This document shows, piece after piece, positions 41,999 through 44,696 of a DNA stretch of 64,000 bases (positions are counted from its first letter, which is position 1; each line of letters begins with the position of its first letter). Under the pieces are notes generated by a model. It did not search any database. It had not been told where the DNA came from and saw only the letters and a list, made by a program, of their open reading frames with translations. The translations under genes were made by a program, and so were the position numbers. The stretch comes from Catenulispora sp. MAP5-51 (GTDB taxonomy: Bacteria > Actinomycetota > Actinomycetes > Streptomycetales > Catenulisporaceae). The stretch is taken from contig NZ_JBGCCH010000005.1 in assembly GCF_041261205.1 (NCBI RefSeq), positions 248,001 through 312,000 of the forward strand. The letters are read 5' to 3'.

Positions 41999-42952
41999 TC
42001 ACCCATCCCCGGGATTCAGCTCCACCAACTGCCGCCCCACCGCCGTCAGCTCGTGCCGCACGCTCTTCCCGTCCCGCGCCGTCGTCACCAGCCCCGCGTT
42101 CCGCAGCAGCGCCGTGTGCGTGGAGGCCATCGGTGCCGAGATCCCCAGCCGCACCGCCAGTCCCGACGTCGAGGCCGGCGACCGCAGGCTGCGCAGTACC
42201 GCCGCGCGTCCAGCGCCCAACAGGGCCGCTAGGTGGTCCTCGGGGTCGGGGTGTGCCTCGTCGAGGTCGGCGGTCGGGTAGATCACGACCTGCGTGCCGT
42301 CGGCGCCGGGGCCGCCGTGGGCGCGCTGCTGGCCGAACAGGCACGGGGCCAGGATCAGGCCGCGGGGCGGGTCGGCGGGGTCCGTGTGCGGGCGCCAGGT
42401 GATGTCAGGGTGCAGGTTCGTCAGCATCGGGAGGGTGCCGTGGCGCTGGAGCTGGCGGCGGCGCATCGATATGTCGCGCTGGAGGTGTTCGGCGACGGTC
42501 GGCCAGTCCGGCATCAGGGTGGCGCGGTACAGGGCCAGCAGGCCGTCGACGACGGCGCGTAGCGAGGCGTCCTCCTGGTTGCGCAGGCCGCGGATCAGGC
42601 GGTCGGACTCGTCGGTGCGGACCGGGGTGGTGGCCAGGCGGTAGCCCAGCAGGTGCGGGGGTGTGGCGCGCAGCTGGTCCAGTTCCTGCTCGAAGGTCGG
42701 GGACGCGGCGCCGTCGCCGGCGATGGCCAGCGGGAGGAAGGCCGGGGCGTCGGGGTGCGCGCGGTTGATCAGGGGGACGAGTTTCGCCGAGCCGAGGCTC
42801 ACCTGGCGGCGGGCTTTGGGCCACCATCGCTGGCGCCACGGGGACTGCCGGCTGCACGGGCCGTCGTGCACGCCGTGGATCAGGTGGCCCAGCGGCGACG
42901 CCACGAAGCGGACCCGTCCCAGGTCCCCGGGGCCGTAGTCGATGGTCTCCAT
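41999..42952 (-). CDS. ArsR-like winged-helix transcriptional regulator (DUF5937-type N-terminal domain)
   Basis: In this 317-residue protein the first about 220 residues form a domain typical of actinobacterial regulators (FVASPLGHLIHGVHD at the N-terminus, then ISMRRRQLQRHGTLPML and LAPCLFG). The C-terminal about 80 residues are an ArsR-type winged helix (GAGRAAVLRSLRSPASTSGLAVRLGISAPMAS by segments). No metal-binding cysteines are seen in the recognition helix. The ATG has GGAGGCGAGG in front and a near-consensus promoter upstream. The target is unknown. Confidence 0.83.
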   Translation of the reverse strand: METIDYGPGDLGRVRFVASPLGHLIHGVHDGPCSRQSPWRQRWWPKARRQVSLGSAKLVPLINRAHPDAPAFLPLAIAGDGAASPTFEQELDQLRATPPHLLGYRLATTPVRTDESDRLIRGLRNQEDASLRAVVDGLLALYRATLMPDWPTVAEHLQRDISMRRRQLQRHGTLPMLTNLHPDITWRPHTDPADPPRGLILAPCLFGQQRAHGGPGADGTQVVIYPTADLDEAHPDPEDHLAALLGAGRAAVLRSLRSPASTSGLAVRLGISAPMASTHTALLRNAGLVTTARDGKSVRHELTAVGRQLVELNPGDG

Positions 42953-42984: not shown

Positions 42985-43013
42985 AGTCCTGCACAGCGCC
43001 CTGCCCGTGTCAA
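42985..43013 (-). promoter_or_regulatory. Promoter of the ArsR-like regulator
   Basis: On the minus strand TTGACA (43013-43008) is followed after exactly 17 bases by AGGACT (42990-42985). Transcription would start near 42978 and give a leader of about 25 bases containing the GGAGG ribosome site. Confidence 0.65.
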
Positions 43014-43017
43014 TGGT

Positions 43018-43225
43018 TTGTGTGTGGGGCGCAATCCAGTGACAGTACCGGGCCGACGCGGGATGATCTGGACTTCCGGGATGTCGGCTGCCGCCGCCCC
43101 GGAAGTGGGGGAGCGGTGAGAAGCGGGGGGCGGCGTCCACCGGTCGCGGACGAGGACGGACGCCGCGCTCACCGCGCACCGCGCGCGAGTGAGCGGCCCG
43201 CCAGGGGTCGGCGGGCCGCGTTTTT
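43018..43225 (+). ncRNA. Candidate structured non-coding RNA with intrinsic terminator
   Basis: In the 342-base gap between two minus-strand genes the plus strand carries three consecutive hairpins. They are a 9-bp perfect stem (43072-43080 with 43098-43106); a nested stem (GCGGTGAG 43113-43120 with CTCACCGC 43168-43175, enclosing GCGGCGTCC 43130-43138 with GGACGCCGC 43158-43166); and a 10-bp stem GCGGCCCGCC/GGCGGGCCGC (43193-43219) followed by G and five Ts. A weak promoter, TTGTGT-17-GACAGT, at 43018-43046 would start it near 43053, giving about 170 nt. No coding frame is convincing. The terminator has its T-run only on this strand, although no plus-strand gene precedes it. Confidence 0.5.
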
Positions 43226-43294
43226 CATCCGGATGGCTGCCGTCTTTCGGGTCGCTGGCGCCCTCGATCGCAGCGGCCGCCGAGGCGGCGACGG

Positions 43295-43786
43295 TCAGTT
43301 GCTGTGGGTCTGCATATGGCGTGCTCCGCGGACGAAGTCCCCGTCGATGGCGGTCTTGACGGTGTACCGCAACGTCTGCGGTGCCGTGGCCTCCAGCGTG
43401 TCGGCAACGTGCCCGGCGGCTCGGGCCTCCAGGACCGCGGCCACCATCGTCGCGCTCTCGACCCGGCTCAGGGCCTCCTGTTCGCGGCACAGCAGGGCGG
43501 CGGCGTAGAACACCATCGCTCCGGGGTGGGTGATCGGGTGCTCAAGGCGGTAGGCGATCTGCTCGGCGAGCCGGGCCAGGGGTTCGCCGGGATAGCGCTC
43601 GGCCAGGTGCCGGCACAGTTTGGCGGCGCTGACCAGGTCTTCGGCGGTGACCGCCGCGGCCGGGCGCAGACGCTCGTCGTCGTCGGCCGGCAGCATGACC
43701 GCCAGCTGGTGGGCGAAGTCGTCGCGGTGGATGCGCCGGTCGGCGTAGCCGTAGCGGCCCGCGGTGAGGACTTCGATACCGGTCAT
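43295..43786 (-). CDS. Conserved-looking protein of unknown function
   Basis: This 163-residue, mainly helical soluble protein has no recognised motif. It begins MTGIEVLTAGRYGYADRRIHRDDF and contains ALLCREQEALSRVESATM; the only cysteines are in the helices (LCRHLAER, LLCREQ). GGGAGAT precedes the ATG by a proper distance, and codon use is normal for the region. It lies 22 bases after the zinc-ribbon gene on the same strand, so the two may be co-transcribed under the MarR-type operator. The function is not known. Confidence 0.65.
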   Translation of the reverse strand: MTGIEVLTAGRYGYADRRIHRDDFAHQLAVMLPADDDERLRPAAAVTAEDLVSAAKLCRHLAERYPGEPLARLAEQIAYRLEHPITHPGAMVFYAAALLCREQEALSRVESATMVAAVLEARAAGHVADTLEATAPQTLRYTVKTAIDGDFVRGARHMQTHSN

Positions 43787-44109: not shown

Positions 44110-44132
44110 AACCATTGCATTATGCAATGGTT
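44110..44132. promoter_or_regulatory. 23-bp perfect palindrome, probable MarR operator
   Basis: The half-site AACCATTGCAT (44110-44120), a central T, and ATGCAATGGTT (44122-44132) form an 11+1+11 perfect inverted repeat. It contains a TTGCAT-type core as in many MarR-family sites. It lies between the zinc-ribbon gene (start 44078) and marR (start 44166) and abuts the putative marR -35 box, so it could repress both directions. Confidence 0.75.
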
Positions 44133-44165: not shown

Positions 44166-44696
44166 GTGCAGCCGGACACCCATCCCGTCACACACGAAGC
44201 CGACGCGGAAGCAGCAGACGCCGAAGCCGCCGACACCGCGGAAGTCGTCGCGGCGGTCCTGGCCGCCTCACGCCTGATCGTCGGCATGTCCGCCCGCGCC
44301 CTGGCCGACGTCGACGACTCCCTGACCCTCCCGCAGCTGCGCACGCTGGTCGTCCTGGCCGACCGCCCGCCGATGAAGCAGGCCGAGCTGGCCTCCGAAC
44401 TCGGCGTGAACCCCTCCACCGTGCTGCGCATGGCCGATCGCCTGGCCGCCGCCGGCCTGATGGAGCGCCAGCCCAACCCCGACAGCCGGCGCGAACAGCT
44501 CGTCGTCCTCACCCGGGCCGGCAGCGATCTGGTCCACCGGGTCATGGACCGGCGCTCCGAGGAGGTCGAGGCCCTGGTCGGCAGGCTGACGCCGGCCGAC
44601 CGCGCGGGCCTGGTGCACGGTCTGCGGGCGCTGACCGAGGCGGTGCCGGACACCTATCCGGACTCGCCGGACCACCCGGGACTCCGACTCGGGTAG
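44166..44696 (+). CDS. MarR-family transcriptional regulator
   Basis: This 176-residue winged-helix regulator shows LPQLRTLVVLADRPPMKQAELASELGVNPSTVLRMADRLAAAGLMERQ by segments (recognition helix about 80-100) and the wing NPDSRREQLVVLTRAGSDLV. An Ala/Glu/Asp-rich N-terminal extension of about 25 residues precedes the dimerisation helix. The GTG at 44166 has GGAGG almost touching it, too close for normal use, which together with the promoter position suggests leaderless translation. It probably autoregulates and controls the divergent zinc-ribbon gene via the palindrome at 44110-44132. Confidence 0.88.
   Translation: MQPDTHPVTHEADAEAADAEAADTAEVVAAVLAASRLIVGMSARALADVDDSLTLPQLRTLVVLADRPPMKQAELASELGVNPSTVLRMADRLAAAGLMERQPNPDSRREQLVVLTRAGSDLVHRVMDRRSEEVEALVGRLTPADRAGLVHGLRALTEAVPDTYPDSPDHPGLRLG

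What the first reader, a model, noticed from the sequence alone, without database searches (positions are those of the whole stretch)
43018..43225. Orphan structured RNA with its own intrinsic terminator
Three successive strong hairpins end in a 10-bp stem followed by GTTTTT on the plus strand, yet no plus-strand gene precedes it and both neighbours are on the minus strand. A weak promoter faces the right way, back to back with the near-consensus ArsR-gene promoter. The most economical explanation is an about 170-nt non-coding RNA of unknown class.
Basis: partly seen in the sequence, partly recalled or inferred. Interest (0 to 1): 0.72.

Follow-up and report, generated by a model that had tools for sequence, protein, structure and literature searches.

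The report
Candidate small RNA beside ArsR-like gene
A short stretch between two genes of a soil bacterium (Catenulispora) is kept nearly unchanged in sister species and looks like a small regulatory RNA read away from a neighbouring regulator gene; it is a plausible but unproven new example of a familiar arrangement.

Summary
The window lies in Catenulispora. In 6 of 10 held genus genomes the spacer between an ArsR-like gene and a 163-aa gene (both minus strand) holds one block: back-to-back -35 boxes, a plus-strand promoter and about 105 nt of non-coding sequence. The core is 81-92% identical; ArsR four-fold sites are 60-65% in four relatives, but 86% in the nearest, where the core is 87%. 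Single-base indels exclude a conserved frame. A 17-bp hairpin pairs in 99.1% of cells in 7 species; its three pair-keeping one-sided changes are G-U on the plus strand. The U-tailed terminator was found in 2 of 7 species. Stem 1 is partly conserved and competes with an invariant alternative. Covariance searches found only the 7 syntenic copies above noise; Rfam gave nothing. Best reading (0.6): a genus-restricted small RNA transcribed divergently from, and probably controlled by, the ArsR-like regulator, laid out like OxyR-OxyS. Transcription, regulation and target are inferred; minus-strand folding statistics are stronger in 6 of 7 species.

The parts
43008..43044 (.). Back-to-back half-sites (43008-43022 and 43030-43044, 7 nt apart) covering both -35 boxes; putative operator
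   Evidence: 12-13 of 15 positions mirror each other in 6 species; zero-mismatch half-site only at these two places in the own genome; symmetry alone not rare and listed by the repeat finder in only 2 of 6 species
43008..43013 (-). -35 box TTGACA of the ArsR-like gene; no clear -10
   Evidence: sequence; not listed by the promoter scan
43039..43067 (+). Promoter GTGACA-17-GATGAT of the proposed RNA
   Evidence: GATGAT in 4 of 6 species, CAGGAT in G002 and G009, spacing 17 in 6 of 6
43074..43178 (+). Conserved non-coding core of the proposed RNA (start near 43074 inferred from the -10)
   Evidence: 81-92% identity in 5 relatives; frame-breaking indels in 5 of 5 relatives
43072..43106 (+).
   Evidence: 7 of 9 pairs hold in 6 of 6 species, 2 fail in some
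43092..43118 (+). Competing stem (43092-43100 with 43109-43118, bulged A43112)
   Evidence: RNAalifold consensus; 8 pairs invariant in 6 of 6, the ninth has a gap in 4 of 6
43113..43175 (+). Main hairpin, 17 bp: 43113-43120 with 43168-43175 and 43130-43138 with 43158-43166
   Evidence: 99.1% of 117 cells paired in 7 species
43193..43225 (+). Terminator hairpin and T-tract
   Evidence: also in G008; not found in G006, G001, G002, G009, G004
41999..42952 (-). ArsR-like winged-helix gene, 317 aa, HTH at the C-terminal end
   Evidence: HTH_5 20.8 bits, cut-off 22; NF033788 37.2 bits, cut-off 55
43295..43786 (-). Convergent neighbour, 163-aa protein of unknown family
   Evidence: no Pfam or NCBIfam match; present in 10 of 10 genus genomes

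Best explanation
The spacer encodes a small non-coding RNA of about 105-150 nt on the plus strand. RNA polymerase starts near 43074 from GTGACA-17-GATGAT. The transcript folds into a 5' hairpin and a long, nearly invariant 17-bp hairpin, and in this species ends at a U-tailed terminator near 43225. The ArsR-like protein read the other way probably binds the half-sites over both -35 boxes and so controls itself and the RNA together. The RNA then acts in trans, most likely by pairing with mRNAs through conserved unpaired segments (for example GTCGCGnACG or the G-rich stretch before the hairpin) or by binding a protein. Shown: conservation, synteny, lack of a frame, conserved pairing. Inferred: transcription, its start and end, ArsR binding, trans action and target.
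For: Core 81-92% identical while ArsR four-fold sites are 60-65% in four relatives. Frame-breaking indels in 5 of 5 relatives. Main hairpin kept in 7 species with one compensated pair, three of three one-sided pair-keeping changes G-U on plus. Plus consensus fold more stable than minus (-47.3 against -44.1 kcal/mol; without G004 -55.0 against -49.4). Promoter spacing kept in 6 of 6. Same neighbours in the 6 species with the block (in G001 the contig ends inside or just after the ArsR-like gene). No plus-strand gene follows before 44166. Regulator-adjacent divergent sRNAs are a known layout (PMC4423775, passages).
Against: No transcript data. Minus-strand z-scores are more negative in 6 of 7 species, clearly so in 4. 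The terminator was found in 2 of 7. The -10 is weak in G002 and G009. Covariation is thin: 71 of 500 shuffles reach the observed score. The mirror symmetry alone is not rare, and the repeat finder lists it in 2 of 6 species. G004 keeps the hairpin without promoter or operator.
Confidence: 0.6

Rival explanations
1. The structured RNA is on the minus strand: a 3' UTR end, terminator or 3'-UTR-derived RNA of the 163-aa gene, or a long leader running into the ArsR-like gene.
For: Minus-strand z-scores more negative in 6 of 7 species. In G004 the hairpin stays beside the 163-aa gene although the ArsR-like gene, promoter and operator are gone. A further conserved stretch, 43223-43257, lies between that gene and the hairpin.
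Against: Three of three one-sided changes in the main hairpin keep pairing on plus only, though one cell in the alternative outer stem favours minus. No U-tract after the hairpin on minus. In G007, where the ArsR-like gene is absent, the 163-aa gene has no such hairpin (no model hit, apart from a 26.6-bit stray on another contig).
Confidence: 0.15
2. The block acts as DNA: an extended operator or binding region for the ArsR-like protein or another factor; the inverted repeats are binding sites.
For: Half-sites over both -35 boxes; block and ArsR-like gene occur together in 6 species and are both absent from G007.
Against: A 17-bp arm kept by compensation and G-U changes, and conservation more than 100 bp downstream of the promoter, fit RNA better.
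Confidence: 0.12
3. The plus transcript runs on into the 3' end of the convergent 163-aa gene and works mainly as an overlapping antisense RNA.
For: Convergent layout; no U-tailed terminator found in four of the six species with the full block. Convergent-overlap RNAs are called ubiquitous in Streptomyces (PMC3765725, abstract and passages).
Against: This would not need a nearly invariant folded core, and in the window and G008 a terminator lies before the gene's 3' end.
Confidence: 0.1

Closest known systems
Divergent regulator-sRNA pairs of enterobacteria: OxyR-OxyS, GcvA-GcvB, SgrR-SgrS (named in PMC4423775, passages)
   Same: Short non-coding RNA gene read away from a transcription regulator with shared spacer and near back-to-back promoters.
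   Different: The regulator is ArsR-like (that of the named pairs is of other families, recalled); restricted to one genus; transcription and regulation untested; terminator not conserved.
Streptomyces intergenic sRNAs (PMC3765725, abstract and passages)
   Same: Spacer-encoded candidate RNA in a high-GC actinobacterium, shared only by close species.
   Different: Those were seen by RNA-seq; this one is predicted only. No model hit above noise in the sampled same-order genomes.
Ms1/6S-type RNA of actinobacteria (PMC9130861, passages)
   Same: Structured spacer RNA in actinobacteria.
   Different: Ms1 is found beside a HAD hydrolase gene in most species and the paper treats RNAs under 150 nt as too short; neither fits here.

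Membership tests
Divergent regulator-sRNA pair (OxyS type, by layout) | RNA gene divergent from a regulator gene, kept together across species | tested here: met
   6 of 6 species with the full block; G004 has lost the promoter side and most of the regulator
Divergent regulator-sRNA pair (OxyS type, by layout) | Non-coding | tested here: met
   frame-breaking indels in 5 of 5 relatives
Divergent regulator-sRNA pair (OxyS type, by layout) | RNA is transcribed from its own promoter | not testable with these tools
   promoter-like site kept in position in 6 of 6, consensus match in 4 of 6; no RNA data
Divergent regulator-sRNA pair (OxyS type, by layout) | The adjacent regulator controls the RNA | not testable with these tools
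   half-sites over both -35 boxes are suggestive only
Divergent regulator-sRNA pair (OxyS type, by layout) | Intrinsic terminator with U-tail | tested here: inconclusive
   found in window and G008, not in 5 others
Ms1/6S RNA | Ms1 gene neighbourhood (HAD hydrolase) | tested here: not met
   neighbours are an ArsR-like and a 163-aa gene of unknown family
Any Rfam 15 family | Score at or above the gathering cut-off | tested here: not met
   0 matches in the window and in 6 relative loci; best at relaxed threshold is a chance-level viral frameshift model, 16.6 bits against 40

The most novel reading that the evidence does not exclude
The RNA is a two-state regulator that forms one control unit with a large ArsR-like sensor: an invariant stem (43092-43100/43109-43118) and the fold with stem 1 plus the outer hairpin arm exclude each other, differ by only 0.2-5.1 kcal/mol in six species, and could be switched by a ligand, protein or target. 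It would be a new, genus-specific RNA class.
Probability: 0.12. Interest if true: 0.6.

Novelty: new member of a known kind. Interest (0 to 1): 0.38.

Why it matters
If transcribed, it would be a new RNA family in a little-studied actinobacterial genus and a case of the regulator-plus-divergent-sRNA layout with an ArsR-like regulator; two library searches listed no actinobacterial example by title or abstract start. It would give a handle on two proteins of unknown role. It remains a candidate, restricted to one genus.

Tried and rejected
Small ORF: a plus-strand frame of 26 codons looked open in the window, but single-base indels break it in relatives. Known RNA class: Rfam at gathering score and at E 10, nothing. 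Plasmid or phage origin: no similar DNA at E 1e-5 in 72,556 plasmid and 50,697 phage records. Wider family: outside the 7 orthologues, models R1 and R2 gave only scores of 32 bits or less, taken as noise and not followed; the searches of more than 40 genomes used stricter filters and sampled genomes. ArsR-like orthologue elsewhere: none at 1e-60 in 393 other sampled genomes of the class. Regulon of the half-site: beyond the two places here, four one-mismatch sites, 6 in all against 10 for the reversed control; not followed. One search used a wrong spacer length and found nothing; disregard it. Hairpin retention in G004 as proof of another function: set aside as inconclusive, because the ArsR remnant is itself still 101 of 134 identical, so the deletion may be recent. 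In alignment A2, and so in model R1, the 5' part of G004 is ArsR remnant and its columns are spurious there; pair counts quoted here use A3 (hairpin) or A4 (without G004). In one search the stretches printed for L043, L044 and L045 were misplaced or cut by contig ends; only L042/L081 were used. Spacer comparison: several neighbour genes are absent from some relatives, so only the methyltransferase-ArsR spacer (30-39% in G008, G006, G002, G009) is a fair control; the 22-nt spacer upstream of the 163-aa gene is 91-100% and counts against the idea that conserved spacers are rare here.

Full report
What is there. The finding lies in the spacer between an ArsR-like gene (41999-42952, minus; weak HTH_5 match of 20.8 bits against a cut-off of 22; NF033788 37.2 bits against 55) and a 163-aa gene of unknown family (43295-43786, minus). 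The window is part of a 10.9-Mb genome in 87 contigs.

Check of the observation. The plus strand has the promoter-like site GTGACA-17-GATGAT (43039-43067) and the terminator-like hairpin 43193-43219 with GTTTTT. The two other hairpins exist. But the plus strand of 43018-43235 folds only slightly better than its shuffles (z -1.57, 7 of 200), and the minus strand stands out more (z -3.55, 0 of 200). Over the core alone, minus z-scores are more negative in 6 of 7 species, clearly in 4; in G004 plus is stronger. The consensus fold, by contrast, is more stable on plus (-47.3 against -44.1 kcal/mol). Folding energy therefore does not settle the strand. The ArsR -35 is perfect but the scan listed no promoter there.

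Comparative evidence. In 60 genomes including the own one, searched with the spacer DNA, five of the same genus gave long matches (174-382 bits) and a sixth, G004, a partial one of 51 bits; other matches were short and at most 50 bits. The syntenic copies were fetched and aligned. The block 43008-43178 is conserved. The terminator region is not: 77% in G008 and 20-38% in the others (another alignment gives 82% and 7-52%). The core 43074-43178 is 87, 92, 91, 81 and 81% identical in G008, G006, G001, G002 and G009, against ArsR four-fold sites of 86, 62, 60, 64 and 65%. Against G008 there is thus no excess; against the other four it is large. In the one fair control spacer (methyltransferase-ArsR) identity is 30-39% in four relatives; the 22-nt spacer upstream of the 163-aa gene is 91-100%. 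Single-base indels at 43092, 43102 and 43139 rule out a conserved reading frame.

Structure. The main hairpin (43113-43120 with 43168-43175, 43130-43138 with 43158-43166) pairs in 99.1% of 117 cells in 7 species. Pair 43130-43166 is G-C in four species, A-U in G002 and G009 and G-U in G004. Pair 43113-43175 is G-U in G002 and G009, pair 43119-43169 is G-U in G008. The three one-sided events keep pairing on plus and would break it on minus. One G004 cell is unpaired on either strand. In an alternative outer stem (43123-43129 with 43168-43175) G004 has an A-C and a U-C cell, and the A-C would pair on minus only. Covariation is thin: 71 of 500 column shuffles reach the observed score, though sliding the partners destroys pairing. 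Stem 1 is partly kept. The alternative stem 43092-43100/43109-43118 is invariant apart from a gap in its first pair and is chosen by RNAalifold.

Promoter, operator, end. The promoter spacing is 17 nt in 6 of 6 species; four share GATGAT, two have CAGGAT. A 15-nt half-site faces its mirror image across 7 nt (43008-43022, 43030-43044), covering both -35 boxes, with 12-13 of 15 matching. The zero-mismatch half-site occurs in the own genome only at these two places. As a symmetry it is not rare: 8 of 300 shuffles and 16 of 160 pieces of the window reach 12, and the repeat finder lists it in 2 of 6 species. Its weight rests on conservation and position. A U-tailed terminator was found in the window and G008 and not in G006, G001, G002, G009 or G004.

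Distribution. Model R1 matched 7 of 60 genomes (own included), all in the genus and syntenic, and 3 of 296 in a class sample including the own genome, the other two at 30-32 bits. Hairpin model R2 gave 7 strong matches (75-92 bits) among 14 family genomes and otherwise at most 31.5 bits, and 4 of 396 in a phylum sample including the own genome, the rest 27-28 bits. The ArsR-like orthologue was not found at 1e-60 in 393 other sampled genomes of the class. Three of ten genus genomes (G003, G005, G007; 77-90% complete) have the 163-aa gene but no model hit above noise and no ArsR homologue above 39% identity. In G007 the methyltransferase and the 163-aa gene face each other directly; I did not read that spacer in G003 and G005.

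A natural deletion. In G004 a piece of the ArsR-like gene (101 of 134 positions identical to the window) abuts the main hairpin (51 of 62 identical); operator, promoter and 5' half are missing. The hairpin may have a function of its own, or the deletion may be recent: intact ArsR orthologues are 81-93% identical over the same segment. I call this inconclusive.

Interpretation. The best-supported reading is a plus-strand small RNA, divergent from and linked to an ArsR-like regulator. The layout is a known kind: PMC4423775 (passages) names SgrS-SgrR, OxyS-OxyR and GcvB-GcvA. Membership can be claimed for layout only. Rfam has no match. Library searches for Catenulispora with small RNA (4 papers), Streptomyces with small RNA, divergent transcription and ArsR (1 paper), ArsR family with sRNA and 'divergently' (3 papers) and Catenulispora with transcriptome (24 papers, 8 listed) listed nothing that, by title and start of abstract, describes this element. 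Apart from passages of three papers I read none of them, and most subscription papers are not in that library.

Noticed in passing
window 43223-43257: A second conserved stretch (TTCATCCGGATGGmyGCCGTCTTTC) just downstream of the 163-aa gene, also kept in G004; it holds the palindrome CATCCGGATG and may belong to that gene's 3' UTR.
   Followed up: partly
window 44110-44132: Perfect palindrome AACCATTGCA-TTA-TGCAATGGTT upstream of the MarR-family gene at 44166, a likely MarR operator; similar TTGCATnnTGCAA sites appear near paralogous loci L045 and L046.
   Followed up: no
L034 2908-3110 (G004): A deletion leaves a decayed piece of the ArsR-like gene joined to the main hairpin, without promoter or operator.
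   Followed up: yes
window 41999-42952: The ArsR-like protein belongs to a large paralogous family in this genus (15 matches in the own genome at E 1e-3, 6-21 per genus genome); the best non-orthologous matches are 37-39% identical.
   Followed up: partly
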